NCBI GenBank assembly: GCA_000310025.1
Contig: FN648686.1
Location: 8,365 to 72,364, forward strand
From: Ectocarpus siliculosus
Lineage: Eukaryota > Sar > Phaeophyceae > Ectocarpales > Ectocarpaceae
Length of the DNA stretch: 64,000 nt
Reading direction: 5' to 3'
The notes beneath the pieces are model-generated. The model had not been told where the DNA came from and made no database searches. It saw only the letters and a program-made list of their open reading frames with translations. Below, in pieces: positions 6,006 through 42,804 of the stretch; positions within the stretch are counted from its first letter, which is position 1, and every line of letters begins with the position of its first letter. Both the position numbers and the translations under genes were made by a program.

Positions 6006-6129
6006 TGTTCGAAGGTGCTACGGATCCGTCCTGGAGGGGTGTAGTCTTAGCGGAAAGCGGCAGCGTAGGATACCAGAGAGAGAGAGAGGGAGGGATAGAG
6101 AAGGTGAGCTGCTCCGTCATAGGCAATTA

Positions 6130-13060: not shown

Positions 13061-13486
13061 ATGACGGAAAGCGAGAGAGAGTTGTTGGAAGAAAGAACGA
13101 AGAAAGCGGAAGCCGAGAGTGCGGAGTTACGGAGGAAACTTGAGGAGGAAAGGGAGCGCAGTTCAGCGGGGAACGCTACGAGAGATAGGGTGGATGGCGC
13201 TGGGTACGCGTCGGGGTATTATAGGGGTGGAGCAGCCGGGGTGGCGGACACCTTTGGAGCCGGGGGAGCGGCTACTTCTTTTCGAGATGGTCCAGTGCAA
13301 CAGCAGTACAGGGACCGCAAGCCACCAGTGTACGACGGCAACTTCCCGCTCTTCAAGACGATATTCGAGGTCTTCCTCGCCGGCGAAGATCTTGGGCACA
13401 CACTCACTCCGCCGGCGAGTCCTGACCAACGCATCTGGCTCATACACACATCCAGGAAGGAGCGAGAACATCAGATTCCACAGTGA
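13061..13486 (+). CDS. Copia-type Gag, N-terminal part
   Basis: The frame starts with ATG at 13061. Residues 1-40 are a charged coiled-coil-like segment rich in E, K and R. A glycine-rich linker follows, and then at about residues 85-125 a block resembling the start of copia-type Gag, with PPVYDGNFPLFKTIFEVFL. The frame runs into a TGA at 13486, whereas the rest of the Gag fold continues one frame over. A frameshift or a short unrecognised intron near 13470-13490 therefore separates it from the next entry. Gag would form the particle shell of the retroelement. Confidence 0.6.
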   Translation: MTESERELLEERTKKAEAESAELRRKLEEERERSSAGNATRDRVDGAGYASGYYRGGAAGVADTFGAGGAATSFRDGPVQQQYRDRKPPVYDGNFPLFKTIFEVFLAGEDLGHTLTPPASPDQRIWLIHTSRKEREHQIPQ

Positions 13487-15645: not shown

Positions 15646-15690
<45 letters not shown>

Positions 15691-15824
15691 GCCGCAGCGG
15701 CGGCGGTAGCAACATCGGTGACGGGGGTAACGGCAGCGGCGACAGCAGCAGCGGCGTCCCCGGTCGCCGCGTTGGCGTCGGGTGTCCAGACGGCCCCAAG
15801 GGCGGCGACGAGGGGTTGCATTAA
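13482..15824 (+). CDS. Copia-type Gag, main part with two zinc knuckles and low-complexity tail
   Basis: This is the useful part of a long open frame. It contains a UBN2/copia Gag-like helical region with MKMQIGEDPQDYFLRFNKVL and LRRSLSADYEQVKIVL, then a Gly run and a Gln-rich tract. Two CCHC knuckles follow at about 14397-14440 (CGRCGHVGHTAIIC) and 14467-14508 (CSICGESGHTARNC), which would bind RNA. After these come a second Gln-rich tract, three and a part copies of a 34-residue Ala-rich repeat (15152-15490), a Ser run encoded by (AGC)n, and a Gly/Ser tail ending with TAA at 15824. The length far exceeds a usual copia Gag because of the tails. No protease or polymerase motif is present. The upstream part lies in another frame. 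Confidence 0.65.
15152..15490 (+). repeat. 102-bp in-frame tandem repeat (3.3 copies)
   Basis: Units start at 15152, 15254, 15356 and 15458 with a constant 102-bp period. They encode an alanine-rich 34-residue unit containing MAPGTSTDVAAV. The last copy is partial. Purine-pyrimidine bias and GC content are very high, so slippage or unequal exchange could account for it. It is followed at 15646-15690 by an (AGC)n microsatellite encoding a serine run. Confidence 0.95.
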
Positions 15825-29110: not shown

Positions 29111-29114
29111 GGAA

Positions 29115-29423
29115 TGTAATGGTATTTGACCCCTTCCTTCAGAATCAATCACCTTTGAGCTGTGTGGAACTCTCTTGTCCGACCACAGTAGCAGGTTGTT
29201 GTTGCTTTCCGTTGTTCTCTTTCTCTTGATTAACGCTTTCCAAGCCAACTCACAATATCCCACGCACACGCGATCATAGATCACCTGTACGCACACACTG
29301 AACAGAAGGGCACATGTCTCGGCATAAAGCCCTGATCTAGCATGACGTCACGTCTTATCATCCGACGGCGCCAAATAACCATGATCAACCACGATCACTT
29401 GTCTACCTCCAAATACCATAACA
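29115..29423 (-). repeat. 3' LTR of the complete retroelement
   Basis: Read on the minus strand it begins TGTTATGGTATTTGG and ends ACCATTACA. It matches the 5' LTR over its whole length except for one base near the end (TGTAAT here against TGCAAT at 42209 on the plus strand). The palindrome TGACGTCA lies at 29343-29350. Confidence 0.97.
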
Positions 29424-29435: not shown

Positions 29436-30609
29436 GAGTGGACGTAGATGCAGATACAGAAGCAAACCTCGGAGGGACTCTAGTCAATCAAGAGGATTGC
29501 GGGATGGATCGAAGATACGACAACTCAAAACCGTCACCCGCACCTCTCCGTTAACCAAGCCAAAGAAGCGGAACCAAGAAAGAAGAAAACAAAGAAGCCG
29601 GAGCGGCAAAGTCGGTAGATGAATTCGGAAAAAGGCACATGGGTGCGAAAAATATCCAAAACATCCGAACCGAAAAGACCATAACACGAAGTAACGAAAT
29701 CGTGAAGAGAAAATCACAAACGATCTCGTACGGATGAACCGATCGAATACGCAATCAAGTAAGCCAGAACCTTACGGGAAGGGGGGCTACGATGCGATCG
29801 AGTGCTGAAATGTAAACATAAAGAATAAGAAACGAAAACCGAGCCTGCAAAGGATCAAACGACATGGAAAACCGTTAGGGGTCGACCAAAATCGAGAAAA
29901 GCAGGGAAAGAGGGGGTTTCCGGGGAACGTAAACAACGGCCAAAGAAAAGGACAGGAACCAACGCCAAAAACAACGTTCGCATGTCACGATACAACGTGC
30001 TTGCGATCGGGGTGGGGCGAGGAAAACAATCCTACTGGGACGTCAAGGCCAATTGCAGGAAGATAAATGCTAAAGAAAGTATCCAGATGGAACACGTTGG
30101 CCGTGGCATGCAATAGAAGCACTGGCGGAACGTTGGACCATAAAATATGCAAAGCAAACCATAGGGGGGGGAGTTAAATGATGCACCAAATTTGGGTGTC
30201 ACCGCAATTAATGACGAACCTAGGTCGCATTGAAAAATAGGTAAAGGGGAGCGAAAACTTTCGACAACCGACCGAGGAGTGACAAACGGGGAGCGAAAGT
30301 ACGCAACACAAAAGCAAGAGCCAGTCTCAAAGAGATTGAGAGGGCGAGCGGAAAGCATAAAGGAGCAATAGCCAGTCTCGAAATATTCGAGAGGGCGAGC
30401 TAGAAACATGCAGAAGCAATAGCCAGTCTCGAAATATTCGAGAGGGCGAGCTAGAAACATGCAGAAGCAATAGCCAGTCTCGAAAATAGATCGAGAGGGC
30501 GAGCTAGAAACATACAGACAAACATACATAAACACAAACATGTAACACACAAACATATACACATACATATACATACACATAAAACAAGGAAAACAAGGCA
30601 ACAGTGCTA
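29436..30609 (-). other. 3' noncoding region of the retroelement
   Basis: This is the 1.2 kb between the end of Pol and the PPT. Minus-strand frames here (30032-30601 and 29484-29717) have a strange Cys/Phe/Tyr-rich composition. They are partly shared with the truncated copy at 7925-9279, so the sequence is a family feature. Long coding function is doubtful because the first frame lies mainly in tandem repeats. Confidence 0.6.
30316..30520 (-). repeat. 51-bp tandem repeats in the element's 3' region
   Basis: About four copies: two identical units of 51 bp at 30370-30420 and 30421-30471, flanked by a degenerate copy on each side. Each contains AGCCAGTCTCGAAATATTCG and GAGAGGGCGAGC. The truncated plus-strand copy near 7930-8060 has two or three diverged units of the same repeat. 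Confidence 0.9.
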
Positions 30610-33600
30610 TCAGGCATCTATAGCCGTACCACGCGACTCGTCTACATTGCGTAAGATACCTCGCATGAAGGGACTACTTCGGTGCAGCTGAAGGCACCAA
30701 GAACCACAAACAGCTCCCAAAGCTGTCGTGTAGCGCGAAGGGGAGAGGGTGATCTTGACAGGTCCAGGGTCATCCAGGAAGCGAACGACGAAGACGTTTG
30801 TAGTTGGAGTATGTCCGGAGATTTTCCCTAGCCACCATAGAGCGTCTTGAGCCTTGTACCAGAAGTGTGCGCCAACAGGCAGCACGGTGTTGCGAAAACG
30901 GCGGGCCCAAACATCGCGGGGAACATATTCGTACCCGGGCGACGAGGACCGCTCGCCTTTCATGCGAGACAGTTCACGTTCCGCTGGGCCAATGCGCATG
31001 CGACGATACAGACGGTTAGTCTGCCGGTGTTGGTCGGGTGTACCAGCCCAATACAGAAGAATCTGTTTTCGGGAGTGTTGGAGGTCCATTTCTCGTTCCC
31101 ACGAGGGCCGCAGAAGACCTTTCCAGTGGGTCTCGTACATGACTGCGATAACGCCGCCACGTCCTCGAACCGACTGGTGTCCCGTGATTTTCTCAACCTC
31201 GAGCCTGCGGACAGGCGCCGAAACATCGTCCGCGGTAACATGGTACGGCGGAGACTTCGTCGTGAAGTTGTTGAGAACATACTGCGTGAGGCCTGCAGGC
31301 AAGAACCGAGGCATGTCGTCACTATCGTGCGGGTTCGCACACGGTTTGCAACGAGCGACAGAAACTCGGCGCTTGGCATCCACTCCGGGCATATCGGAGG
31401 GAAGATCCAAAAACAGGAGCTTGTCAGCCATCGGGCTGCCATCGGGAGCCTTGTTGCAAGGACCGACTGCTAGGATTTTAAAAGGACCTGCCCAATTCAA
31501 GGACAGCTTCTTCTTGAGTACCTGGGAGTCAGCGTCTGCGCGGGCCTTGGAAGTGAGTTTGGCACCTTGGCGGATGGTAGCCAAATGGTTGTAGACCCAC
31601 ACCCAACCACCGGTAGCGTAAACGGGTAGTTTGTGTAAGGCATCAGACAGTTTCGAGTTCCGTCTTTCCATACGGGAAACTGTGAGTTCGTGTTGTTCAC
31701 GCACTAGCTCGTAGGAGCGCCGTTGCCGATCGGCGGCAAGGTTGCAATACTCGAGCTGATCGCGGGCAAGCGACTGGTGACCACGAGCGTAAATGTTGTC
31801 AAAAACGGTCAGTGGAAACCTGGGAAGGCGCGCCATATGCACCTCATTGGGCGCCAATCCTGTGGCAGCGCTAACGGAGTTGTTGTACGCGAATTCAACA
31901 TGAGGGAGATGAATGTCCCAATCATCTTGTCGTTCGTTCACAACCATTGCCAGCATCTGGGCCATGGTGTGGTTCGCGCGCTCAACTCCTCCGTTGCCGC
32001 TAGGGTGGTACGCGCTCGTCGTAATTTTTCGGACGCGTAGCAATTTTAGGATGGCAACCGACAGTTTGGAGCAAAACTGCAATCCGTTGTCAGAAAGAAT
32101 GCTGAGGGGGCATCCCCAAACAGGCATGTATTTATTGACAAGGACGTCAGCTGTACCTTCAGCGGTGAACTCGGCGTCAGTCACTGCGTACATATTGGCT
32201 CTCCGACTGAAACGGTCAGTGACTAGCAAAATATACGAGAAACCTCGCGGAGTTGTGGGAAGCGGACCAAAATAGTCGACGCTAATCGCGACCCCTGGTG
32301 CCGAAGGCAGAGGGATCGTGAGAATCGGCCAGCGAATAGTCTGGCGCGCAGTTTTGCGGGCCTGACATTTCAAACATCGCCGAATCCACCAACGAGTACT
32401 GATACTCATCCCAATCCACCAGTAAAACCTCTCAAGCAAGCTGAGCGTGCGAGCGGTACCAAGGTGGCAGAGGGCGTTGGCATGACAAGCTTGCATGACC
32501 CAAGGTCGCATTAACATGGGCACGTAAATACGAGTGGGTTCGTCATTCAACAGACGTGCAGCTCGTCCTCCGGGACGGTTAGAAGAGACCGGGGGCTTGG
32601 TATTCTTTCGTACCAAGAGGCAAAGGCCATCGTCAGTGACGAGGCGTCCTTTATCTGCAAGCTCTCGAATATCCTCCAACGAGGGTCTATGCCTGGAGTG
32701 ATATGACACTCTGGCAAAGAAATCGACAGGTAGACTCTGAGGGCGTTTGAGGAGAATGTAGCGGATGGTGGCTTCACACACCGGCTCTTTCTGCTGTTCC
32801 CGCGCCCAATCGGCACGCGTGTAGCGTTCGACGGACTGACGGAATTCTAACTCTGCAGGATTGAGGACCATGGAATCCACTGCGGGCGTTGCCTTACCAG
32901 CTGCAGCAGCCGGTTGTGACAAACCCAACAGAGGACCCGTAGGGGCGTCGGTAACCGTCTCCGGCGGTGCTATAGGCACCGTTGGGACAGGTTCGACAGC
33001 AGGCTCAGGCGTGGTGGCAGCTGGTGTCACTCGTGTTTGACGACGAGAAGCGCCTGCACGCGGAACGTGTGGGGGGATCGACAAATCAGGACCGAAACCG
33101 TAGTTTACATCGGGTTGAGGCTGACCCGCAGCAGCCGCGGTTCGGCGACGCGTACGAGTAGAGATCAGTTCCGACGGATCAATACGATGCGGTTGCAACC
33201 GAGAGGTCGAAGGCGGCGGCAATGAGTCGGCGGCATCCAAACGATCAGAGTGGGAGCCGGCGTCGACAGTTGCGGTCGCATGAGACACGACAGGGGGCAA
33301 CCGAGAGTTATCGTCGGCGGTCTGTGTGTCGTGGACAGGGAGCGCAAATGCAGCTGTATCCGTGTGGGGTCGCGCAGACGGTCCGTAAACCGTGGCGGCG
33401 TCCCTATACAATGGTCTAATCGGAGACACAACAGGAGAAGCTGAAGACCGGAGTGCCGGCACAGCGCCCTGTATTTTCTGGGTTGCAGCGGAAGTAACCT
33501 CAGGCACCGCAAATACGGAGTGGTCGGTGCAAGACAATGCACGATCGTCCGCAAGGTGTCGCAAAGGTCCTCGCGCATTGACGTACGGAAAAACACGAGC

Positions 33601-36108
33601 GACGAATTCTCCTGCAGGAGCATCAAGATCGTCAATCCTCCTTCGAGGCCCGTGTTTGCGAAAATCCGCAAAATCATCGGAAGTGAGGGGTAGCCCACCC
33701 AAAGCGGCGTTCTCGCTCGGGGGCGCCAGCCCACCCAAACCAACGCCAGGCGTGGTTTGTCCGGGTGGTGCGTGACCTGTCGCTCGGATCAGATACACAC
33801 CAACGTCTTCTGGGGACGTCAAACGACTGTTACCGTTGATGTCGGCGGCAGTAGGCTCAATCGGCAGACGAGACAGCATGTCAGCGTTTCCGTTGGAGGC
33901 ACCTCGTCGGTACTCCAACGTGTAGCTGTATGCTTCAAGGAACTCAATCCAGCGTTGGACGCGTGGGTTGTGCTCGCTGATTTTTGACAAACTTTCCAGC
34001 GCCTTATTGTCGGAAAAGATGCGGAAGTGTGTGCCACGAAGGTATTCGCGGAGACGCTTGATCGCCCATACAACGGCTCCTGCTTCGAGATCGAGAGCGG
34101 TCCAGTTGCGTTCAGCGTCGAGCGTGGCTCTGCTGATGAAAACGATCGGCCGTACCGAGCCGTCTTTCTGCTCTTGCTCCAGCGCGGCGCCGAGACCGTC
34201 GGAGCTGGCGTCACAGCAAAGACGTAAAGGGCGTGTACCGTCCGCAATAGCGTCCCAATCAGGAAACACTAAAATGGGCGGTTTCGCGAGCTCAGCCAGT
34301 AAGCTGCGAACAGTTGTTTCCATGTCGCTCGTGAAAGCGAAGGGAACACCTTTTTTGAGCAAGTGCGTAATGGACTTCACACGCTTGGCCATGTCTCTGA
34401 GGAAACGTCGGTAGTAGCTCAGACCACCCATGAGTGACCTGAGTTGCTTGACGGTCGTCGGCATGGGCATACCTGCCAGGGCGGCTACTTTACGGGCGTT
34501 GGGGAGGACACCTTTCGAAGATATGGTGTGCCCCAAGAAGTCAGCCTTGGTGGTACCGATGGTGGCTTTCGAGGGAGAAAGTTTGAGGTCGTACTTTCTC
34601 AACCGTTCGAAGAGCGTGCGCATATTACGGACATGCTGCAGTGGGCCTTCGTCAAAAACAACGACGTCATCGAGGTATGCCTCGACTCCATCGAGTCCTT
34701 TGATTACTTCGTTAATCACTTTTACAAAGTGGCCTGCGGATTGGCTAGCACCCATCGGCATGCGGAGCCATTCGAACAAACGAGTGGGGGTCGCAAAAGC
34801 CGTAAGGGGGATAGTGTCCTTGTGGACAGTGATCTGGTGGAAAGAACCCGTGAAATCGAATAACGAGAAAATCGAACCTCTGTTGAGTTTCGTTAGAATC
34901 TCGTCGACTCGGGGGATGGGAAGTTGACCAAAGCTGCTGATATGGTTCAACTTTCGGTAGTTAACCGTGATGCGTATTCCACCAGACTTCTTTGGTATAA
35001 CCACGATGGGGCTGGAATAAGGAGAGGTCGAGTGCTGAATTAGGCCAGCAGCTAGATACTGGTCCAAAATGGCATCGACTTGCTTCGCAACCAAAGGATT
35101 CATACGGTACGGTTTGGACGTCACCGGGGGACAATCCGGAGGTACTTTGATCTCAAACGGCATCAGGGAACAGGACCCTAAATCCGTCGAGGATGTGGAA
35201 AACACGTCTTGGAAATCATGCAAAAGATCACCAAGTTCTGTGATGACCTCTGGTGACCAACCAGGACCGTGTAAATCAAACTTAACCAACTTCAGGTGAG
35301 GCGGCAAGCGATTCCACAATGACTCAAAGCTAACTCGCTGTTCAGCGCTCAACCGCTCCATCACATGCTGTGGTGGCGGCGAGGGCGAAGTGTGAGCGGG
35401 GGCAGGGGCCGCAGGGGGTGATTTCCCTGGGTCCGGCACAGGAGGATCGGTGGATCGTAGGTTGTGCACGAAGGGATCGTGGCAACGCACCTGCGGATCG
35501 ACGGTCCTGTCCGCGATATCCTCGGTAGAACCCAAAATAGGTCCAGGCACCGAACATGAAGTGTCAGCTTCGTCACTAAACTGTTGCTCTAAATGCTCTA
35601 CCGGGACGCGCATCAGCGGGGCGGCAGCAGTACCGAGCAAGTCTCCTGGCTCAAGTTCTGCAGCGCCCGCGAGCGGCACAAACTGACGTCCGTCGGAGAC
35701 AAAGATCTCTTCGTTCGACGAAACATCAGGCAACATGTCGACAAGGTATTGACCGGTCAGAGCCGGTGTACCGTTGGAACGCACCAAGTTGACTTCAATC
35801 ATTTGGTGGACGTCTGACAATGAAGTACCCGTTGGCCCTGCATAACGGAGCTGGAATTGGTCCGCCGGGGCTGTGAAATCGGGCACATACGCGACGGCAC
35901 CAGAATCATCCTGGTGGGCAAGCGTATATTCACCAAAAACGCGATTGTCCAGTGGCCTCGGAGGCAACATACGGTACGTGCGAGTGTTAAATCGCATGAA
36001 ACTATCGCGTCCCAATAGGATGGGAAACTGCATGGTGTTTGCAGGGACGATGTGCGCCCAAAACGGCAAGAGAAGCCGAAGGCGTATCACCGTGGAAAAA
36101 TTGCACAC
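30610..36108 (-). CDS. Pol: protease C-terminus, RT, RNase H, integrase, chromodomain, Tudor-like domain
   Basis: This is an uninterrupted 1832-codon frame whose first codon is GTG directly after a stop. It is probably entered by frameshift from the NADAR-protease frame. Residues 20-40 hold the protease C-terminal strand with FPILLGRDSF. RT spans about 320-530, with the catalytic YLDD at 478-481. RNase H follows, with CCDASSDGLG at about 631-640 and FSDNKAL near 698. Residues 751-1090 are a Pro/Ser/Thr-rich linker. The integrase has H1209, H1215, C1245 and C1248 for zinc, and D1278, D1340 and E1376 with the typical 35-residue D-E gap. A chromodomain-like block follows at about 1636-1690 (YETHWKGLLRPSWEREMDL). 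A Tudor-like block lies at 1743-1795 (GAHFWYKAQDALWWLGKI, VVRFLDDPGPVKI). It would copy element RNA into DNA and insert it. All key catalytic residues are present, so it could be active. Confidence 0.95.
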   Translation of the reverse strand: MCNFSTVIRLRLLLPFWAHIVPANTMQFPILLGRDSFMRFNTRTYRMLPPRPLDNRVFGEYTLAHQDDSGAVAYVPDFTAPADQFQLRYAGPTGTSLSDVHQMIEVNLVRSNGTPALTGQYLVDMLPDVSSNEEIFVSDGRQFVPLAGAAELEPGDLLGTAAAPLMRVPVEHLEQQFSDEADTSCSVPGPILGSTEDIADRTVDPQVRCHDPFVHNLRSTDPPVPDPGKSPPAAPAPAHTSPSPPPQHVMERLSAEQRVSFESLWNRLPPHLKLVKFDLHGPGWSPEVITELGDLLHDFQDVFSTSSTDLGSCSLMPFEIKVPPDCPPVTSKPYRMNPLVAKQVDAILDQYLAAGLIQHSTSPYSSPIVVIPKKSGGIRITVNYRKLNHISSFGQLPIPRVDEILTKLNRGSIFSLFDFTGSFHQITVHKDTIPLTAFATPTRLFEWLRMPMGASQSAGHFVKVINEVIKGLDGVEAYLDDVVVFDEGPLQHVRNMRTLFERLRKYDLKLSPSKATIGTTKADFLGHTISSKGVLPNARKVAALAGMPMPTTVKQLRSLMGGLSYYRRFLRDMAKRVKSITHLLKKGVPFAFTSDMETTVRSLLAELAKPPILVFPDWDAIADGTRPLRLCCDASSDGLGAALEQEQKDGSVRPIVFISRATLDAERNWTALDLEAGAVVWAIKRLREYLRGTHFRIFSDNKALESLSKISEHNPRVQRWIEFLEAYSYTLEYRRGASNGNADMLSRLPIEPTAADINGNSRLTSPEDVGVYLIRATGHAPPGQTTPGVGLGGLAPPSENAALGGLPLTSDDFADFRKHGPRRRIDDLDAPAGEFVARVFPYVNARGPLRHLADDRALSCTDHSVFAVPEVTSAATQKIQGAVPALRSSASPVVSPIRPLYRDAATVYGPSARPHTDTAAFALPVHDTQTADDNSRLPPVVSHATATVDAGSHSDRLDAADSLPPPSTSRLQPHRIDPSELISTRTRRRTAAAAGQPQPDVNYGFGPDLSIPPHVPRAGASRRQTRVTPAATTPEPAVEPVPTVPIAPPETVTDAPTGPLLGLSQPAAAAGKATPAVDSMVLNPAELEFRQSVERYTRADWAREQQKEPVCEATIRYILLKRPQSLPVDFFARVSYHSRHRPSLEDIRELADKGRLVTDDGLCLLVRKNTKPPVSSNRPGGRAARLLNDEPTRIYVPMLMRPWVMQACHANALCHLGTARTLSLLERFYWWIGMSISTRWWIRRCLKCQARKTARQTIRWPILTIPLPSAPGVAISVDYFGPLPTTPRGFSYILLVTDRFSRRANMYAVTDAEFTAEGTADVLVNKYMPVWGCPLSILSDNGLQFCSKLSVAILKLLRVRKITTSAYHPSGNGGVERANHTMAQMLAMVVNERQDDWDIHLPHVEFAYNNSVSAATGLAPNEVHMARLPRFPLTVFDNIYARGHQSLARDQLEYCNLAADRQRRSYELVREQHELTVSRMERRNSKLSDALHKLPVYATGGWVWVYNHLATIRQGAKLTSKARADADSQVLKKKLSLNWAGPFKILAVGPCNKAPDGSPMADKLLFLDLPSDMPGVDAKRRVSVARCKPCANPHDSDDMPRFLPAGLTQYVLNNFTTKSPPYHVTADDVSAPVRRLEVEKITGHQSVRGRGGVIAVMYETHWKGLLRPSWEREMDLQHSRKQILLYWAGTPDQHRQTNRLYRRMRIGPAERELSRMKGERSSSPGYEYVPRDVWARRFRNTVLPVGAHFWYKAQDALWWLGKISGHTPTTNVFVVRFLDDPGPVKITLSPSRYTTALGAVCGSWCLQLHRSSPFMRGILRNVDESRGTAIDA
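36002..36108 (-). other. Overlap where a +1 frame change joins protease to Pol
   Basis: The Gag/NADAR/protease frame stops at 36002, and the Pol frame is open from 36108, shifted by +1. The protease fold reads naturally if the switch occurs near the sequence encoding ...AVLGAH in the first frame and ...HIVPANTM in the second, around 36050. Programmed +1 frameshifting is known in Ty-type elements. A mutation or sequencing indel would look the same here. Confidence 0.6.
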
Positions 36109-38095
36109 TCAGACGGACTGTATCAGACGTCTGAAGAGACTCGGATTTACCAAAACCTCCCCAAGAACGTGAGTTACCGTGCGAGATGCAAGCCTCTGAG
36201 ATGGCTCCCATGGCTTTGAGGGTACCGACAGCGTTGCTGTTGATGAACGTGGCCGGTGATCCTGAATCGAGCAGAGCGGCGCAACCATATTGTGATTTGG
36301 CTGGCCCAGCGTGGATTTTGACTCGAGTCGTAAATGAAGCGTCGTCAACTGTAACAACACCACCTACGAGGCAAGGACCATGCTCAGCGAGCAACGGTAC
36401 ACGATCTTCCTCATGATACTCAGCGGACGTAACCGCGAGAACTTCAGCGCTGTGATCCCTTGGAACATGCGCTGATTTTATGCGGTAACCTGACGACGGG
36501 GCGGCCTCCTCGGCGGCAGCCGTCGAAATACGCTCTTGCGTTGCAGGGTTAACCTCATGTATTGTATTCCGGAGCTGAGCGTCGGACGAAACTTGTGGTG
36601 GAAGTGTCGGCGTCGGCGCGTGCTCTCGGAGTAGGTCTCGAACAACCTGCAGTGTTTTGCCAAGCAGATTGGAGCCCCGCCATAAAGAGGGTTGGATTGC
36701 AGCAGGATCATCCGCGCGATGTCCAATGCCCCATATGGCATCGAATGGGCTAGCTTCGACGAGCATTTTGTCGCCGGTGCCCAAAAGATGTTGTCGCATA
36801 GCGGGATTTTGCGAAAATTTGTAGTAGGAGGCGACACGCACCACGTTTTCACGCTCGCGCTCCCAAACAGCTTCATCAAACCCTTTAACTTGGCGTCCGT
36901 AACGCTTATGTTTAATCGGGTCAGAAACACGCATAATCCGCCGCAACGTATCTTGGTCGCCAAAGAGACGAGCCTTGGCAGCCGCGAAGAATTGTTCTCC
37001 ACAAGAGTATTCCACACCATCTACAGTAAAGATGGAGGGCGTCCATTGCGAGAAAACCGATGGGGCTTGCCAGAACAACACCATGTCAGGTGTGCAGTAC
37101 TCCTTGCTCGGATCAAACGCTGGTGGTGAACACCTGGCGTCGGTCGGAGGAGGAGGGTAGATACGAATACCAGCTATAGCGGAGGAGGGGGATGTCTGTT
37201 TCCCCAAGTCCTCTACTCTTCCAACAGCGCAACCCGGTGGGGGTGTATAGTCTGTAGTGCTTTCGCTAGAATCCATCACGTTGGAGACATGACGGACCTC
37301 CCTTGACGAGGGTCGCGAGTTTTTCGCTGTTTGTTCAGCGAGGGGCGCAATCGGAGCGTCCTCCGAATACGGTGTTGTCAGCACCTCCGTGGTCGCGGTT
37401 GGGGACCGCTCAGTTTTGGTACTCCGCGAATCGCAAACCACGGGAAATCGACGCGTATTTCTTTCAACGCAATCGGTCATACTCGCTTCACCGTGCGGCG
37501 AGTGACTTTTATTACCGTCTCGAGTTCCATCGGCTGTATCGCCGCAGGCTGTCGATGACCCGTACGTAGTGGACATGTCCAAAGCATCGCTCGAGGTGGC
37601 TAAACCCGGCGACACTTCATGTATTGTCGACAACGTAGGTGTCCTAACGGTCTTCCACGAGGACGTCTGAGCGGACCTCTTGGGCATGCTCGACAATCCC
37701 GACCTTCCGTACCCGCACCTCAAACCGACCCTTGCATTCGTGTAGCCAACACGTAATGGTTCAGGCTGGTTTGCGGGCGGCAACGTGGTGTAATCGTGGG
37801 TTGTGCAAGCTGCTCGAGCTGTGTTAAAACTCGGGGAGCCGCCTTCAAGACAGGTCGCTCCTTGAGTTCCTAACCTTGGGGTATATGCATTGACGACAGC
37901 GCTGAAGCTGCCGTGATCGGGAGTGTGGGCTACACCATCTTCACCCGATGAGGTCGAAGCACTACCGCTTGTAGCGGAAGTGTCGGTTGTAGGAACAGGA
38001 GTGGTACACTCGACCGTACCTACTATACGCGCATCCTGCGACACATATCTAGCTGCTCCCTGTTTTGCCATCGGCGGGTCGGGGAGTAACGACAA
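36002..38095 (-). CDS. NADAR (YbiA-like) domain fused to retroelement aspartic protease
   Basis: The 697-codon frame is in phase with Gag. It is separated from it by one TGA and has no ATG at its start (TTG is first), so readthrough is the likely route of expression. Residues 1-330 are Ser/Thr/Pro-rich and disordered-looking. Residues 335-492 (about 36620-37093) match the NADAR/DUF1768 family. They carry the ordered hallmarks SQWTPSIFTVDG, YSCGEQFFAAAKARLFGD, DPIKHKRYGR, YYKFSQNPAMRQHLLGTGD, LVEASPFDAIWGIG and NLLGKTLQVVRDLL. Family members cleave N-glycosidic bonds of riboflavin intermediates (YbiA) or remove ADP-ribose from guanine bases. Residues 605-690 are the retroviral-type protease with ALLDSGSPATFI. 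Its last strand lies in the next frame, +1 relative to this one, overlapping over 107 bp. The NADAR role in the element is unknown. Confidence 0.9.
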   Translation of the reverse strand: MSLLPDPPMAKQGAARYVSQDARIVGTVECTTPVPTTDTSATSGSASTSSGEDGVAHTPDHGSFSAVVNAYTPRLGTQGATCLEGGSPSFNTARAACTTHDYTTLPPANQPEPLRVGYTNARVGLRCGYGRSGLSSMPKRSAQTSSWKTVRTPTLSTIHEVSPGLATSSDALDMSTTYGSSTACGDTADGTRDGNKSHSPHGEASMTDCVERNTRRFPVVCDSRSTKTERSPTATTEVLTTPYSEDAPIAPLAEQTAKNSRPSSREVRHVSNVMDSSESTTDYTPPPGCAVGRVEDLGKQTSPSSAIAGIRIYPPPPTDARCSPPAFDPSKEYCTPDMVLFWQAPSVFSQWTPSIFTVDGVEYSCGEQFFAAAKARLFGDQDTLRRIMRVSDPIKHKRYGRQVKGFDEAVWERERENVVRVASYYKFSQNPAMRQHLLGTGDKMLVEASPFDAIWGIGHRADDPAAIQPSLWRGSNLLGKTLQVVRDLLREHAPTPTLPPQVSSDAQLRNTIHEVNPATQERISTAAAEEAAPSSGYRIKSAHVPRDHSAEVLAVTSAEYHEEDRVPLLAEHGPCLVGGVVTVDDASFTTRVKIHAGPAKSQYGCAALLDSGSPATFINSNAVGTLKAMGAISEACISHGNSRSWGGFGKSESLQTSDTVRLSVQFFHGDTPSASLAVLGAHRPCKHHAVSHPIGTR

Positions 38096-38110
38096 GCCGC
38101 CGTTGGGCTG

Positions 38111-38113
38111 TCA
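38111..38113 (-). other. In-frame TGA between Gag and NADAR-protease
   Basis: The minus strand reads GGT AAC TGA CAG CCC, with the same frame open for 465 codons before and about 702 codons after. A single stop in an otherwise open 1.17-kilocodon frame suggests translational readthrough, as used by some retroviruses and Ty3/gypsy elements between Gag and Pol. A chance nonsense mutation is the alternative. Confidence 0.6.
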
Positions 38114-39508
38114 GTTACCAGCATTATACGTTCCAGGAGTGCGGGCATTTGGGTTGGAGTCTACGGGGAGTCGGCTGTTGATTCTTAACGCCGGCTGCGC
38201 GTGTGTGGCAGACGCTGGAGCAGTACCTGCATGAGGCTGGTATGCTACCAATGTGTGCTGTTGGGCTGGTGCACTAGATTGCAGCAGGCCCTGTGGTGGC
38301 GGTTGATGCCACGTCTGAGTGTATTGTTGCGGGTTTGGAGCGTTACCAGCGTATTGAACTCTATGAGCTGGTCTGTGGGAACGGCGCCGGTTTTGTTGGC
38401 CATTCGAGTTGCGTGAGCCGTGTGTTGTGGCAGTCGCAGGCTTAGTCCTCCAGGACCGCAAGCGCTCTTGCCACAGGCGAAACATGTCATCACCATCAGT
38501 CAGTGCACCTAAATCTGGGTTCAGGACACCACTAGCATTGGTGAAAGGCTGTTCACAGTGTTTGATGGAGTGGCCAGACCCGTGACAGTTTAAACAACGG
38601 CCAGCATTCGCGCTGAACGCTTGTGCTCGGTCAGCTCTAGTCCTAAGGAGTGGTGTCCAAAGGGGGGGGAGTTGACGTTTGAAACCACTGGAAACAACAG
38701 CATGCACTGTCTCCCAATGATCGTTGGTGGCCAGCGGCCAAGCATCGTAGCTAACACAAAACACATCATGAATTGGCTCTGCCTTAACACGCATGACCGA
38801 TTTGCCACGTGCTCCCTGGGAGCTCCAAGGCTGCTGCGATTGCGTCGTCGAACGTCCTTGAGAACGACTACCGCCTTGCGAATGCAACGATAATCCACTA
38901 AGCGAGAGCGCAGCATATTGCTCGCCATTCTCTGCCTTAACCTTAGAGGTCGTGAACTCATTCAGCACTCGCCACATCTCATCCAGACTACTGTAGGGTT
39001 CTGCCGCGGTACGCTTTGCACCCGGAAAACAGTCAGACATCATCACAGAAAACTGGTCGTTGATCTTATTCCTTGTGATCCCGACAATCCAAGTCTCGTT
39101 AGGGCTAAAAAGACTGGAATAGTGCGTGATGTTGTTCACGGCAGTACGATACTGTCGCAAAAATTCTCCAAACGTAGTTCCGTTGGGAACACCGAACGCA
39201 TTCAGCGTTGTCAAGGCGTCTCCACGGTCTTCATGCTTGAAGTGGGACGCGATCAGACGAAGAAGGTGCTTGAAAGCTTCTCCTCCGTTCATACCGTCGT
39301 CCATACGCTGCTTCACCTGCACAAACATACCATTGATAGAGCTGATAAGGTCACCAGTGGTTTGCTTGTTTGGGGATACGGCGCTAATGATGGCTTTCTT
39401 CAGCGGGTTTTCCCACCCGCGAACCCACGTATCGGATTTGTCAAAATCGATGAAAGGGTCAGCCTGTTGCAAGACATCTAAGGCTGCAGCCTTGATAGAA
39501 TCTAACAA
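38111..39508 (-). CDS. Gag, capsid and nucleocapsid part
   Basis: The 465-codon frame opens directly after a TAG and begins with TTG, so its N-terminus must come from upstream frames or another start. Residues 1-200 are helical and capsid-like, with LDSIKAAALDVLQQADPFID, LIASHFKHEDRGDALTTLNA and TFGEFLRQYRTAV. Residues 305-318 form a CCHC zinc knuckle, CLNCHGSGHSIKHC, expected to bind genomic RNA. The C-terminal 140 residues are Gln/Pro/Asn-rich. It ends at the TGA discussed separately. Gag would assemble the particle in which reverse transcription occurs. Confidence 0.8.
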   Translation of the reverse strand: MLDSIKAAALDVLQQADPFIDFDKSDTWVRGWENPLKKAIISAVSPNKQTTGDLISSINGMFVQVKQRMDDGMNGGEAFKHLLRLIASHFKHEDRGDALTTLNAFGVPNGTTFGEFLRQYRTAVNNITHYSSLFSPNETWIVGITRNKINDQFSVMMSDCFPGAKRTAAEPYSSLDEMWRVLNEFTTSKVKAENGEQYAALSLSGLSLHSQGGSRSQGRSTTQSQQPWSSQGARGKSVMRVKAEPIHDVFCVSYDAWPLATNDHWETVHAVVSSGFKRQLPPLWTPLLRTRADRAQAFSANAGRCLNCHGSGHSIKHCEQPFTNASGVLNPDLGALTDGDDMFRLWQERLRSWRTKPATATTHGSRNSNGQQNRRRSHRPAHRVQYAGNAPNPQQYTQTWHQPPPQGLLQSSAPAQQHTLVAYQPHAGTAPASATHAQPALRINSRLPVDSNPNARTPGTYNAGN

Positions 39509-39511
39509 CTA

Positions 39512-40878
39512 ACTGCGGCACTGCCTGTTTCAGGTTTGCCGGCCAAGGGATCGATGGTTGTATACGAATATCCCTCAACTTCGTCTTGATGTACTTCGCA
39601 CTGATCTCTCTGATTCGTGCAGCTTCTGCAAGCGCGTCAGCCTTGTCTCTACTTGGCGAGCACGAGCAGTCGTTGACGACAACGGTTGGGCGTTATGGCC
39701 TACGAATGCACTATTGCGTGACATCAATGAGTGGTCGCTGGCTGCAACATCACCCAACAACGGTACTTGCCTGTCGTCACGCGGGGCTGTCAGGGGTTGG
39801 TCCAGACGCTCCGCCAGTTTGGCGAGCGCTGCGGAAACACAAAAAGTCTTTGGCATTGTCGAAGGCGGGAAGGTACCAGTTGACCTCCGCCGGGCGGTAG
39901 CCACCTGTAAGGTTAGCGTAACCTCCTCTGAGCCCGTGCAGAAGGCGCGTTACCGATTCGACTAATGGGGCGTCTACCTTAGGGGCATGAGCGACGTGAT
40001 GCATGAATTCACGGAGAGTGACCGTAGGTCTCTCCGAGCTTTCTAACATCGTCGTCAGCACTGTAGCCGCCTTGGTGACTGGTATTCTGCATGCTTCCGT
40101 GAAGGCCTGCTGGTGCACGTGCGCGAAGTTGGACACCGGAATGTCAAAGAACAATTCATCCCCCGTTCGGAGGCTGAGGTCCGGCGGTCCTTGCGCCATT
40201 TGGCTGTATGACGGTTGGGCCGGGGGCGGTACCACATAACCACCTCTAGCGATGGACAGTGGTGGTTTCAGCAACAGCCCTTGCTGCTGGTATCGTATGG
40301 CAGACCGTACCCCGCAGGGCCGGCGTGCTGGGGCTCGGAACCAAGCTTATTCGAGCCGGTGAGCGCCATGTGCTGCGAACCAAATCCCGAAGGACCGGTG
40401 AGCGTGTGCTCCGCACCGAACCCCTGTGGGTCGATGGGAGAGTTTCGCGTCGAACCAAATCCCGTAGGATCGGTGAGCGATGGCTCCGCACCGAACCCCT
40501 GTGAGTCGGTGGGAGGGTTTCGCGTCGAACCAAATCCCGTAGGATCGGTGAGCGAGGGGCTCTGCGAACCATACCTCGAAGGGTAAGTGCGAGCCTGCTG
40601 CAAACCATGCTCATTAGAGCCGGTGAGCTGTGTGAAGGTCCAACAGACGAGAGTGCATTACCATGGGGTACAACTGGGTGTAGTCTTTTTTCGGTAATTT
40701 CATGGGCAGGCACAGGCCGCGTTGGGGCGGCCGTTGACCGTGCTAGATCGATTTACCACCTAGACGCCGTGACCGTCTAACAACAGGCATACTCGTAGTT
40801 TGCACACGTGTGGGCGAAAATGGGAGAGGAGGGGCTGCTGTAGGGGTACGATCTTCGTCTACGGCGGGTAAAGATACA
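39512..40878 (-). pseudogene. Frame-broken N-terminal Gag/leader region
   Basis: Protein-like segments occur in alternating frames. 40603-40268 has repeated DPTGFGSTRN and GFGAEPSLT. 40274-39777 (starting LLKPPLSIARGGYVVPP) has a folded-looking stretch with FFDIPVSNFAHVHQQAFTEA. 39904-39575 has AALAKLAERLDQPL. A further segment just before the Gag frame reads as ADALAEAARIREISAKYIK. Each looks coding, yet none joins the next without a frame change, so at least three shifts are needed between 40.6 and 39.5 kb. Introns, indels in this copy or assembly errors would all explain it. Given the near-identical LTRs, heavy decay is not expected. Confidence 0.5.
40400..40549 (-). repeat. 75-bp in-frame tandem repeat
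   Basis: Two units of 75 bp (40400-40474 and 40475-40549) differ at only a few positions and are flanked by shorter, more diverged copies. In the minus-strand frame they encode a 25-residue unit containing TDPTGFGSTRN and GFGAEPSLT. Confidence 0.9.
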
Positions 40879-42087
40879 CTAGATACAGGTTCTACGTCTC
40901 TGCCTGCAATTGCATCGGTCGGACAGGGGCAGAAGCATGGTTGCCGGTCGGAACATATTCACTATCTGTGTATTCACGTGATTGTGGACGCGGGTACACA
41001 AGTGCACAGCGTCGCTTGCATCATGCGCGGCACCAGGCGGGGCAGGGTTGCTGGAAGCAAATGAGCCGCTGGTGGCTTGCGGTGTCTCACCATCAGCGGA
41101 TCTCAGGGTATCCGACTGCTGTGAGGTCGCAGTGGTTCTCAAACTTTGACAGCGAGAGCCATCTCCATCCATCTCCGAAACATTTGTGTTGTTCTCGGAA
41201 TGCGATAAAGAAGGGGTGTCGGCATGCAGCCGAGAGAACGTTTTGATAGTTTCTCGGGGGCTTGCGACAGCGAGACCAGGGGCAGAATCGCTCGAGGCGA
41301 CTGCTCCGCTGGTGCGTTCTGACGTGCGTTCGACGGAGCTGCTAACTCCAATCGAGTGCGTGTGTGAGGCATCGATCAAACTCGTGGAGTGAGAGCCAAC
41401 ACTATCCACATTCGGCACATACCCGCGCTCGGAATGGGATGCAGCCGGGCTGGCGTCGGAATAATTCAAACTCTGAGGTTCAAACATGCCGACAGCGACA
41501 GCTGGGCTACCAGGGGCAGGAGTACTAGACTCGACCGCGCCACTGGGGGCGTCCGACACGCGCACAATGGAGCTGTGAGCGTCATTCGTGTGCGTGCGTG
41601 AGGCTTCAATCAAACTCGGAGAGCGAGAGCCTTCACCATCCAATTTCGGCACATTGCTGTGTTCGGAATTGGATGCGGGGTGTGAGTGTGCGCGTGGAAC
41701 CACCGAGCGCATCTGCATTTCTGCAGGTGTCTCAAGGCGGTGTGCCACATCTGATGACCAGCGGCGAGCTGAATCACGAGAGGGTACAGACCTGGAGCGC
41801 GGCGCGCGACCAAGGCCTTCAGTGTGCGATCGTGCAACATCATCTTCCTGAGAGTCTACGTCTGCTAACGTGCGTTCGAACTGCGATCGCGATCGTGGCT
41901 GCTGCTGCTGCTGCTGAAAAGTCCGACCGCGAACATGCAAGAAGGCATTCGGCGAATCCTTATCAACACGGAGCGAGCTACGCGAAGCATGCGAATCATC
42001 ATCATCAGGAGTGTTGTGCGGCGACAAAGGGAACGGGGTCGAAGCAGCAGAGTCGCTGCTACCTCGCGGCTCATCAGGAGCCGACAT
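40879..42087 (-). CDS. Serine-rich leader ORF with three ~75-residue repeats
   Basis: This is the first ORF of the element, with a true ATG at 42085-42087, 122 bp downstream of the 5' LTR. The 402-residue product is Ser/Ala/Pro/Thr-rich with a short Gln run near residue 60. From about residue 135 to 365 there are three diverged repeats. Each holds a SHSE-like start, a (V/M)D-x-x-GS segment, SLI-x-ASxTH, a SGAVxSS-xAPG block and a Phe/Leu-containing end. No catalytic motif is visible. It may be the N-terminal, disordered part of Gag or an independent accessory protein. It ends in a Cys/Arg-rich tail (SDRCNCRQRRRTC) that may already be out of frame. Confidence 0.65.
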   Translation of the reverse strand: MSAPDEPRGSSDSAASTPFPLSPHNTPDDDDSHASRSSLRVDKDSPNAFLHVRGRTFQQQQQQPRSRSQFERTLADVDSQEDDVARSHTEGLGRAPRSRSVPSRDSARRWSSDVAHRLETPAEMQMRSVVPRAHSHPASNSEHSNVPKLDGEGSRSPSLIEASRTHTNDAHSSIVRVSDAPSGAVESSTPAPGSPAVAVGMFEPQSLNYSDASPAASHSERGYVPNVDSVGSHSTSLIDASHTHSIGVSSSVERTSERTSGAVASSDSAPGLAVASPRETIKTFSRLHADTPSLSHSENNTNVSEMDGDGSRCQSLRTTATSQQSDTLRSADGETPQATSGSFASSNPAPPGAAHDASDAVHLCTRVHNHVNTQIVNMFRPATMLLPLSDRCNCRQRRRTCI

Positions 42088-42195
42088 GCTGAAGCAGGGC
42101 CAAGGCTGTTGCCCTGCCGCTATTCAGCAGACGACTGCAAAAAAGCGAAAAAATCAAAATCAATTGAACGCAAGAATCAAGCAACACGACCAAAA

Positions 42196-42208: not shown

Positions 42209-42517
42209 TGCAATGGTATTTGACCCCTTCCTTCAGAATCAATCACCTTTGAGCTGTGTGGAACTCTCTTGTCCGACCACAGTAGCAGGTTGTTGTTGCT
42301 TTCCGTTGTTCTCTTTCTCTTGATTAACGCTTTCCAAGCCAACTCACAATATCCCACGCACACGCGATCATAGATCACCTGTACGCACACACTGAACAGA
42401 AGGGCACATGTCTCGGCATAAAGCCCTGATCTAGCATGACGTCACGTCTTATCATCCGACGGCGCCAAATAACCATGATCAACCACGATCACTTGTCTAC
42501 CTCCAAATACCATAACA
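42209..42517 (-). repeat. 5' LTR of the complete retroelement
   Basis: The 309-bp LTR begins TGTTATGGTATTTGG on the minus strand and ends ACCATTGCA. It is the partner of 29115-29423 with one mismatch. It should contain promoter and polyadenylation signals. No classical TATA box or AATAAA is evident, but a perfect TGACGTCA lies at 42437-42444. Confidence 0.97.
42437..42444. promoter_or_regulatory. TGACGTCA palindrome (CRE/bZIP-type site) in the LTR
   Basis: The perfect 8-bp palindrome recognised by many bZIP factors lies about 75 bp from the LTR start in both young LTRs (also 29343-29350) and in the truncated LTR (59207-59214). The older LTR at 8970 has TGATGTCA. It may drive induction of the element; this is inference from motif alone. 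Confidence 0.5.
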
Positions 42518-42804
42518 GGAAGCTATGAACACCCCTATAATTTCTTGCGTGCGAGGACACCGTCTACTACCGTCCGACAACTGCCGTATCTGGTCAAGTT
42601 TCGTTCTTGTGTCGATAACATCTCGCAGTGCTATGGCCTCGACCAACCTTTTGTAGCAAGACCAGTATCTATAGCACAAAGGATATTCCAAGTTCAACTT
42701 GTTGGATTTGGTGGTGAGCGTCGGGGTATAATGGGTAACTTAGTCGAGCGAAGGGAGATTTATAATCTGGCCTTAGGTCTCCCCGCAATATAGGACCCCA
42801 TCAA
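42518..42804 (-). CDS. Host flank: exon remnant next to the retroelement
   Basis: A minus-strand frame over about 42525-42697 has a protein-like stretch (LVEAIALRDVIDTRTKLDQI, RCPRTQEIIGVFIAS). It runs straight into the retroelement at the GGAA duplication. The retroelement therefore probably interrupted an open frame. The right part abuts the hAT target duplication (CCCATCAA at 42797-42804). Function is unknown and the exon boundaries are not defined. Confidence 0.3.

What the first reader, a model, noticed from the sequence alone, without database searches (positions are those of the whole stretch)
36620..37093. NADAR (YbiA-like) enzyme domain embedded in an LTR retrotransposon polyprotein
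Seen: the frame between Gag and protease holds all the ordered NADAR hallmarks (GEQFFAAAK, GR, KFSQNPA, LLGTGD, WGIG, NLLGKTL), and the frame is intact in a copy with near-identical LTRs. Known: NADAR proteins hydrolyse N-glycosidic bonds in riboflavin precursors (YbiA) or remove ADP-ribose from guanine in nucleic acids as antitoxins to DarT-like enzymes. Inference: the element packages a base or nucleotide repair activity, perhaps to undo host ADP-ribosylation of its RNA/cDNA. This is the best candidate here for an undescribed system.
Basis: partly seen in the sequence, partly recalled or inferred. Interest (0 to 1): 0.95.

Follow-up and report, generated by a model that had tools for sequence, protein, structure and literature searches.

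The report
NADAR enzyme inside seaweed retrotransposon Pol
A family of jumping genes in a brown seaweed carries an intact-looking enzyme domain of a kind that removes ADP-ribose from guanine, probably made by reading past a stop signal between its coat and copying proteins; such carriers were already reported in the seaweed Ectocarpus, so this extends a known oddity and makes its purpose testable.

Summary

It is not an undescribed system: PMC12477816 (2025) reports NADAR at the N terminus of Pol in one Ectocarpus Gypsy lineage. The host here is a brown alga too.

Added here: (1) seven NADAR families in this genome. (2) NADAR is constrained (pN/pS 0.12-0.31 in three families, 0.63 in the window's) while the adjoining linker drifts (0.74-1.09). 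(3) ADP-ribose-contacting residues are kept. (4) UGA-C stands at the Gag/NADAR-Pol junction in 40 of 40 copies spanning it, from seven families, with both sides in one frame in six; this suggests stop-codon readthrough. A downstream stem is possible but weak. (5) The window copy itself is broken in gag and near the protease/RT boundary.

Best guess: a Gag-Pol-borne hydrolase that strips ADP-ribose from guanine in element RNA or cDNA. The substrate is untested.

The parts
42209..42517 (-). 5' LTR, 309 bp, TG...CA
   Evidence: 1 of 309 positions differs from the 3' LTR; 40 full-length LTR matches listed in the genome, both of this element included, 40 of 222 candidates scored
29115..29423 (-). 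3' LTR, 309 bp
42518..42521 (.). target-site duplication TTCC, 5' side
   Evidence: flanks printed
29111..29114 (.). target-site duplication TTCC, 3' side
   Evidence: flanks printed
40879..42123 (-). Gag-region frame piece 1 (414 aa), not joined to the rest in this copy
   Evidence: in copy C91 the same region lies in a 1,663-aa frame
39777..40346 (-). Gag-region frame piece 2 (189 aa)
38114..39508 (-). Gag frame piece 3 (465 aa) with a CCHC zinc knuckle at about 38555-38596
   Evidence: motif CLNCHGSGHSIKHC found by regular expression; no Pfam match over its cut-off
38111..38113 (-). in-frame UGA (followed by C) between Gag and NADAR-Pol
   Evidence: UGAC in 40 of 40 junction-spanning loci of 45 examined, 7 of the 40 being the queries themselves, 7 families
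38072..38102 (-). possible readthrough-aiding stem, arms 38097-38102 and 38072-38077
   Evidence: RNAalifold gives these 6 pairs on 17 of the 40 junctions; 93.3% of cells paired, 2 pairs with double changes, mixed controls
37097..38110 (-). unconserved linker (338 aa), open frame
   Evidence: pN/pS 0.74-1.09 in four families
36620..37096 (-). NADAR domain (Pfam stretch 36626-37075)
36005..36610 (-). aspartic-protease region (LLDSGSPATF)
   Evidence: motif by eye; no Pfam match; the region follows NADAR directly in 128 of 150 listed NADAR loci
34522..34998 (-). reverse transcriptase RVT_1
   Evidence: E 1e-23
33928..34236 (-). RNase H (RT_RNaseH)
   Evidence: E 6.6e-31
32350..32523 (-). integrase zinc-binding domain
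   Evidence: E 5.1e-13
32002..32301 (-). integrase core (rve)
   Evidence: E 3.7e-09
31048..31200 (-). weak chromodomain-like stretch
   Evidence: PF00385 E 0.0052, 17.1 bits, below the 25.1 cut-off

Best explanation
This is a Ty3/gypsy-type LTR retrotransposon of a brown alga whose Pol begins with an active-looking NADAR domain of the YbiA subfamily. Gag and Pol are one reading frame split by a UGA-C stop; a minority of ribosomes probably reads through it and makes Gag-NADAR-Pol, so that NADAR enters the particle with protease, RT and integrase. There it most likely hydrolyses the N-glycosidic bond of ADP-ribose on guanine, in the packaged RNA or the new cDNA, and so keeps the template copyable when host or foreign ADP-ribosyltransferases act. 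Shown here by computation: the domain, its fold, kept ligand residues, purifying selection, the shared frame in six of seven families and the invariant UGA-C in all seven. Inferred: readthrough itself, packaging, catalysis, substrate and benefit. My confidence by step: NADAR identity 0.98, selected function 0.9, readthrough 0.75, guanine-ADP-ribose as substrate 0.4.
For: Identity and fold. Residues named around ADP-ribose in 8bau (PMC11543638, section 12 read): E43 in 59, K50 58, R79 58, W89 58, R93 58, E125 61, W133 60 of 61 copies, damaged copies counted. E125 is the Glu that marks the YbiA subfamily. Selection: NADAR pN/pS 0.12 (F2), 0.16 (F4), 0.31 (F5), 0.63 (F1), against 0.74-1.09 in the linker of the same frame and 0.11-0.57 in protease. 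Between families NADAR keeps 52-77% amino-acid identity (the near-identical F2/F2b apart) while dS is above 1 or beyond estimate. Expression: UGA-C in 40 of 40 spanning junctions, 33 of 33 without the query copies; NADAR's frame runs unbroken up to this UGA in 22 of 44 copies, in 6 of 7 families; shared residues (SQD.R[VI]) come before the first Met in F2 and F4. Chemistry: among the hydrolase families tested, only NADARs removed ADP-ribose from guanosine in RNA (PMC11833690, passages).
Against: No activity, expression or particle was tested. F1, the window's family, shows only weak constraint among its copies (0.58, 0.63), F3 likewise (0.56, 3 copies). In 22 of 44 copies NADAR's frame meets another stop before the UGA-C, both F6 copies among them. 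The stem is thinly supported: 96 of 500 shuffles reach the number of double-change pairs, 494 of 500 the number of further pair types, a +3 slide scores higher on covariation, and single-sequence z-scores run from -0.76 to -3.07. No source of guanine ADP-ribosylation was found in the host: DarT 0 matches, PARP 4 short matches, ART 0 in a search whose controls also rang nowhere. NADARs outside DarT operons protect poorly from DarT1 in cells (PMC11125620, passages). Ectocarpus also has a 391-aa NADAR protein tied to abiotic stress (PMC7922944, passages), so the domain may serve other ends in these algae.
Confidence: 0.5

Rival explanations
1. The NADAR domain acts on a small molecule (free ADP-ribose derivatives, cyclic ADP-ribose, NAD-derived signals) and blunts a host alarm, not on nucleic acid.
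For: The same ligand pocket would bind free ADP-ribose derivatives; PMC9503650 argues that phage NADARs mainly target low-molecular-weight ADP-ribose signals (passages).
Against: The same paper argues that NADARs inside polyproteins of eukaryotic RNA viruses, the nearer analogy, target macromolecular ADP-ribosylation. A soluble signal gives no reason to link the domain to Pol.
Confidence: 0.25
2. The domain keeps its ligand pocket but serves as a binder or structural part of Pol (for example RNA or ADP-ribose binding), without catalysis.
For: Conservation of fold and ligand residues does not prove turnover. In Tx1 LINEs of the oyster a NADAR is reported in ORF1 proteins (PMC12477816, passage); that ORF1 binds RNA is recalled.
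Against: E43, K50 and E125, whose counterparts in E. coli C7 NADAR matter in mutants (PMC11543638), are kept in 59, 58 and 61 of 61 copies.
Confidence: 0.15
3. NADAR-Pol is made by re-initiation at an internal ATG or from a spliced RNA, not by readthrough.
For: The region after the stop has an early Met in some families (residue 14 in F1, 32 in F7, 37 in F5, 47 in F3). No RNA data were available.
Against: First Met lies at residue 381 (F2) and 221 (F4), behind shared sequence. Gag and Pol share a frame in six families, and the same UGA-C persists in seven, which splicing or re-initiation would not need.
Confidence: 0.2
4. Passenger: a captured gene fragment with no function in the element.
For: Named bacterial entries outside the elements reach 60% identity; in F1 and F3 constraint is weak.
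Against: pN/pS 0.12-0.31 in three families beside a linker at 0.74-1.09; 62 of 159 residues invariant among 7 family representatives; element rows form one group.
Confidence: 0.04

Closest known systems
NADAR-bearing Gypsy lineage of Ectocarpus (e.g. Gypsy-12_Ec32), PMC12477816, 2025
   Same: YbiA-type NADAR at the N terminus of Pol, Ty3/gypsy order, brown-algal host, chromodomain-like Pol C terminus. Proteins of Ectocarpus sp. CCAP 1310/34 match families here at 83-91% over the domain: P0134 to F3 90.6%, P0141 to F2 86.8%, P0126 to F3 83.3%.
   Different: For the window's family F1 the best of these three named proteins reaches 64% over the domain. The selection contrast and UGA-C layout are added here; the paper's main text holds none of the words readthrough, read-through, stop codon or frameshift (supplements not read).
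Phytophthora nicotianae NADAR (8bau) and E. coli YbiA (2b3w)
   Different: Both were solved as single-domain proteins of 189 and 168 residues; this one is part of a retroelement polyprotein. YbiA differs at K75 (Ala) and R93 (Lys).
DarT1-associated NADAR antitoxins (BC4488 subfamily)
   Same: Superfamily; Glu and Lys of the pocket.
   Different: The window domain has Glu at the position that is Asp there, and no DarT was found in the host.
NADAR domains in polyproteins of animal RNA viruses (PMC9503650)
   Same: An ADP-ribose hydrolase-type domain carried in a polymerase polyprotein; a like role is argued there.
   Different: Unrelated replicon type: RNA-dependent RNA polymerase viruses. Sequences not compared.
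Tx1 LINE ORF1 NADAR of Crassostrea gigas (PMC12477816)
   Same: A NADAR domain carried by a retrotransposon.
   Different: A LINE, in ORF1; described there as divergent. Sequences not compared.
Ectocarpus protein Esi0017_0056 (PMC7922944)
   Same: A brown-algal NADAR (DUF1768) protein, residues 132-291 of 391.
   Different: Described as a stress-related protein; the paper has no mention of retro- or transpos-. Its sequence was not compared, so I cannot say whether it is a host gene or an element remnant.
Stop-codon readthrough in gypsy-type elements (rice RIRE2, cited in PMC2754532)
   Same: Candidate readthrough in a gypsy element.
   Different: Known to me only as a citation; sequence not compared.

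Membership tests
NADAR superfamily (PF08719) | Match over the curated cut-off | tested here: met
   160.2 bits against 35.1
NADAR superfamily (PF08719) | YbiA-like fold | tested here: met
NADAR superfamily (PF08719) | Conserved pocket Glu and Lys (E43, K50 in 8bau) | tested here: met
   Window E34 and K41 of the domain; 59 and 58 of 61 copies
NADAR superfamily (PF08719) | Hydrolysis of guanine-ADP-ribose | not testable with these tools
   Needs purified protein
YbiA subfamily | Glu in the last strand (E125 in 8bau) | tested here: met
   E114 of the domain; 61 of 61 copies
DarT1-associated (BC4488) NADAR | Asp at that position | tested here: not met
   Glu in 61 of 61 copies
DarT1-associated (BC4488) NADAR | Genetic link to DarT | tested here: not met
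   PF14487 0 matches in the genome, exon by exon; the control rang in 1 of 14
Ty3/gypsy (Metaviridae) LTR retrotransposon | Paired LTRs with target-site duplication | tested here: met
Ty3/gypsy (Metaviridae) LTR retrotransposon | Order PR-RT-RNase H-integrase | tested here: met
   Pfam order; PR by motif only
Ty3/gypsy (Metaviridae) LTR retrotransposon | RT phylogeny within Metaviridae | not tested
   No reference RT set at hand; the placing of the NADAR lineage is taken from PMC12477816
NADAR-Gypsy lineage of Ectocarpus | NADAR at the N terminus of Pol, one clade | tested here: met
   Layout; the Ectocarpus proteins and the seven families fall in one group against 76 other rows, support 99/89, in all 200 bootstrap trees. 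Unrooted sense only; the paper's own consensus sequences were not held
NADAR-Gypsy lineage of Ectocarpus | C-terminal chromodomain | tested here: inconclusive
   PF00385 E 0.0049-0.093, below cut-off, in 5 of 6 families tested; structure model useless, pLDDT 33.6
Programmed stop-codon readthrough | One conserved stop between two in-frame coding regions | tested here: met
   UGA in 40 of 40 spanning loci of 45 examined; same frame shown in F1-F5 and F7, not in F6
Programmed stop-codon readthrough | Leaky context (C after the stop) | tested here: met
   C follows in 40 of 40. That UGA-C is leaky is recalled; for a leaky UAG in plants, changing that C to G abolished readthrough (PMC2754532, passage)
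Programmed stop-codon readthrough | Stimulating RNA structure | tested here: inconclusive
Programmed stop-codon readthrough | Readthrough product seen | not testable with these tools
   No protein or ribosome data

The most novel reading that the evidence does not exclude
Brown algae, or something that attacks them, ADP-ribosylate guanines in retroelement RNA or cDNA as a defence, and a whole Gypsy lineage has carried a Gag-Pol-delivered NADAR eraser against it for long evolutionary time. To my knowledge that would be the first retroelement counter-defence that works by removing ADP-ribose from nucleic acid, and it would imply an unknown nucleic-acid ADP-ribosylation system in these algae.
Probability: 0.25. 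Interest if true: 0.9.

Novelty: new member of a known kind. Interest (0 to 1): 0.5.

Why it matters
An LTR retrotransposon lineage that keeps an enzyme of NAD/ADP-ribose chemistry under selection is unusual. Here seven families of one genome keep a NADAR pocket, and in the families tested the linker next to it drifts, so the enzyme matters to the element. Because NADARs remove ADP-ribose from guanine in DNA and RNA, this points to guanine ADP-ribosylation, known to me mainly from bacterial and pierisin-type toxins, as a pressure on eukaryotic retroelements. That can be tested with existing assays. The UGA-C junction gives a concrete account of how the enzyme would reach the particle.

Tried and rejected
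Host NADAR genes: I looked for NADAR loci without the element's protease. 128 of 150 listed NADAR matches have it within 1.5 kb, 22 do not; 19 of 150 listed protease matches lack a listed NADAR. Both searches scored 150 candidates only (of 230 and 268), so the unpaired ones prove nothing. Esi0017_0056 of Ectocarpus (PMC7922944) was found at the end and not compared.

NADAR-less relatives: three protease loci without a listed NADAR were read. L083 does hold a NADAR, in two frames. L082 and L084 carry only the later part of the region with unrelated or rearranged sequence before it, so they look truncated. Two public proteins, P0160 and P0165, show no NADAR upstream of the protease, but a protease tree leaves gain against loss open. 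P0146 I read by eye as an out-of-frame NADAR, not a loss, although the tree counted it among the three rows without NADAR.

Chromodomain/Tudor: the Pol C terminus is well conserved between six families, but Pfam gives only sub-threshold Chromo and the structure model failed at pLDDT 33.6. A Tudor reading is my eye only.

Host ARTs: PARP gave 4 short matches (E 4.5e-6 to 4.3e-4; 0 of 14 controls rang), DarT none; the ART search rang in no control and shows nothing. Donor: genome contigs gave 8 bacterial relatives at 38-52%, viral contigs 3 at 39-43%; no donor is named. Protease identities that involve F3 (0.21-0.27) were set aside because that copy's frame is broken. The first tree count set the element rows only against the two PDB rows and was no test; one search repeats it against 76 other rows, with 8 rows left out because the tree had placed them inside the element group. 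A first count of UGA-C was biased, because it kept only matches that began at the stop; one search repeats it with upstream flank and gives the same 40 of 40. Foldseek pdb (asked once) and viral (asked twice) were never run, machine busy.
Full report

THE ELEMENT. Two 309-bp LTRs (42209-42517 and 29115-29423) differ at one position and are flanked by TTCC on both sides. Pol holds RT, RNase H, integrase zinc finger and integrase core in that order. Gag carries a CCHC motif. Similar NADAR DNA at 95% or more occurs at 25 full or nearly full-length places in the genome, the window included (40 of 42 candidates scored); 40 full-length LTR matches are listed (40 of 222 scored). The whole genome (189 Mb, 492 contigs) gave 150 NADAR matches, 150 of 230 candidates being scored.

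THE HOST. The mitochondrial nad2 protein is 97% identical to an unnamed entry; the best named ones are Cladosiphon okamuranus (88%) and Pleurocladia lacustris (86%), both brown algae, and the named entries that follow closest are brown algae too. The host is a brown alga; its species is not settled, and I cannot exclude an Ectocarpus species.

PRIOR WORK. PMC12477816 (Genome Biology, September 2025; passages seen) reports that the families of one Ectocarpus Gypsy lineage all have a YbiA-family NADAR at the N terminus of Pol, that blastp mostly finds bacteria, and that oyster Tx1 LINE ORF1 proteins also appear to hold NADAR; it suggests processing of RNA intermediates. NADAR domain with transposable element, and YbiA with Gypsy, each found this paper alone. 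NADAR with retrotransposon found 104 papers, 40 listed, many by authors' names; three were opened and this was the only one on point. The library holds open-licence papers only. Three Ectocarpus sp. CCAP 1310/34 proteins match families here at 83-91% over the domain. So the finding is a new member of a known kind. PMC7922944 (passages) describes a 391-aa Ectocarpus protein with this domain, linked to abiotic stress; I did not compare it.

SEVEN FAMILIES, ONE GROUP. I sorted the domains of 61 loci (60 genome copies and the window) by eye into seven families, F1 (window) to F7: 53 copies assigned, 8 damaged or partial ones left out of the selection counts. Between families the domain keeps 52-77% amino-acid identity with dN 0.17-0.50, while dS is 1.0-3.2 or beyond estimate; the one near-identical pair is F2 with its offshoot F2b. 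In a tree of 120 rows, 36 rows that I labelled as element (8 from this genome, 28, labelled by their match to the NADAR-protease query) are parted from 76 others by one branch (support 99/89, in all 200 bootstrap trees). Eight further rows lie on the element side and may be element fragments. The tree holds top hits only and is midpoint-rooted, so the direction of transfer and the donor stay open.

ACTIVE SITE. Using 8bau numbering, which I matched to the paper's residues by an offset of two, the residues that PMC11543638 names around ADP-ribose (section 12) are kept: E43 in 59 of 61 copies, K50 58, K75 56, G78 57, R79 58, W89 58, R93 58, E125 61, D130 60, W133 60; Y84 is Phe in 57; D86 varies, Glu in the window. 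Frameshifted and partial copies are counted. The Glu at 125 marks the YbiA subfamily; the Asp of DarT1-linked NADARs is absent.

SELECTION. In the same open frame the 140 or 220 residues before NADAR have pN/pS 0.84-0.92 (F1, 15 and 12 copies), 0.96-1.05 (F2, 4), 0.96-1.09 (F4, 5) and 0.74-0.85 (F5, 5 and 2). NADAR has 0.63 (18 copies), 0.12 (4), 0.16 (6) and 0.31 (7); protease 0.57, 0.26, 0.11 and 0.20 (pairs that differ at 15% of bases or more were dropped, as misaligned). A second count on more copies gave NADAR 0.58 (F1, 19 copies), 0.24 (F2, 8), 0.33 (F2b, 2), 0.56 (F3, 3), 0.17 (F4, 8), 0.31 (F5, 10) and 0.18 (F7, 2). Between families NADAR identity (0.53-0.65) is above that of protease (0.48-0.57) in all six pairs without F3, and well above the linker (0.24-0.39). 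So the domain is kept about as tightly as protease, a core retroelement enzyme. In F1 and F3 constraint is weak; drift of copies after insertion could explain that.

HOW IT IS MADE. In F1 the stop between Gag and NADAR is the same TGA in 19 of 19 other copies. With upstream flank, 40 of 40 junction-spanning loci of all seven families read TGAC, 33 of 33 if the seven query copies are left out; 5 of the 45 loci examined do not span the junction. NADAR's own frame runs unbroken to this TGA in 22 of 44 copies (F1 10 of 20, F2 3 of 4, F3 1 of 3, F4 5 of 6, F5 1 of 7, F7 2 of 2, F6 0 of 2); in the rest another stop comes first. Of the 20 such copies, 19 have the Gag CCHC motif in that same frame. 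In the window the frame after the stop is open for 338 codons (chance about 3e-6 from base composition). Shared residues come before any Met in F2 and F4 (first Met at 381 and 221). One F1 copy has a 1,663-aa frame over the Gag region; its length fits an end exactly at this TGA if it begins where the window's frame does.

THE STEM. RNAalifold on 17 of the 40 junctions (15 distinct) proposes a 6-pair stem 8 nt after the TGA; 93.3% of cells pair and two pairs show double changes (C-G to U-A, G-C to A-U). Controls are mixed. For: 14 of 500 shuffles reach the pairing, 1 of 500 the cells with double changes, 3 of 500 the covariation score. Against: 96 of 500 reach the number of double-change pairs, 494 of 500 the further pair types, a +3 slide scores higher on covariation (0.284 against 0.248), F2 and F7 lack the outer pair, and the seven z-scores run from -0.76 to -3.07. 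I read UGA-C readthrough as likely and the stem as possible. The Ectocarpus paper's main text holds none of readthrough, read-through, stop codon or frameshift.

THE WINDOW COPY. Against all 19 other F1 copies compared it carries a one-base length difference near the end of protease that puts NADAR-protease and RT in different frames, and its gag region is in three frames. 9 of the 19 stay open from NADAR past that boundary to the end of the fetched piece, and two run from NADAR to the Pol C terminus in one 2,537-aa frame (C237 and C25). The window copy is thus young by its LTRs but defective.

MECHANISM. NADARs remove ADP-ribose from guanine in DNA (PMC11543638, section 12 and passages). Among the hydrolase families tested they alone did so in RNA, while the tested NADAR was inactive on phosphate ends (PMC11833690, passages). 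At the head of Pol behind a leaky stop, the domain would be packaged at Gag-Pol level. I therefore favour repair of the packaged RNA or cDNA. Against this, no guanine ADP-ribosyltransferase was found in the host: DarT none, PARP four short matches, ART search uninformative. The substrate remains a guess at about 0.4.

BACTERIAL CONTEXT. Public proteins that join NADAR to QueC-type (PF06508), DUF4326 (PF14216) or ADP-ribosylglycohydrolase (PF03747) domains turned up (accessions from the call; names partly recalled). They fit a role around guanine or ADP-ribose chemistry but are no test of it.

Noticed in passing
13065-15824 (+): A 919-aa frame with weak copia-type gag (PF14223, E 2.1e-5) and zinc-knuckle matches, both below cut-off; maybe a gag-only Copia element like those reported in Ectocarpus.
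   Followed up: no
4404-6017 (-): A 537-aa frame with FNIP repeats (PF05725, E 8.4e-29).
   Followed up: no
30312-30518 and 40376-40555: Tandem repeats inside the element: 51-bp units (4 copies) between Pol and the 3' LTR, 75-bp units (2.4 copies) in the gag region, where the window's gag frame breaks up.
   Followed up: no
L077-L081 and window 30613-31431 (-): Behind the weak chromodomain the Pol C terminus has a conserved block (WYKA.D.LWW.G.I...VRFLD.PG) that looks Tudor-like by eye; no Pfam match and no usable structure model.
   Followed up: partly
P0154, P0155, P0156, P0159, P0163: Public proteins, apparently bacterial, that join a QueC-type domain (PF06508, 7-cyano-7-deazaguanine synthase) to NADAR.
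   Followed up: no
P0160, P0165: Relatives of the element's protease region without NADAR upstream; they could date gain or loss of the domain.
   Followed up: partly
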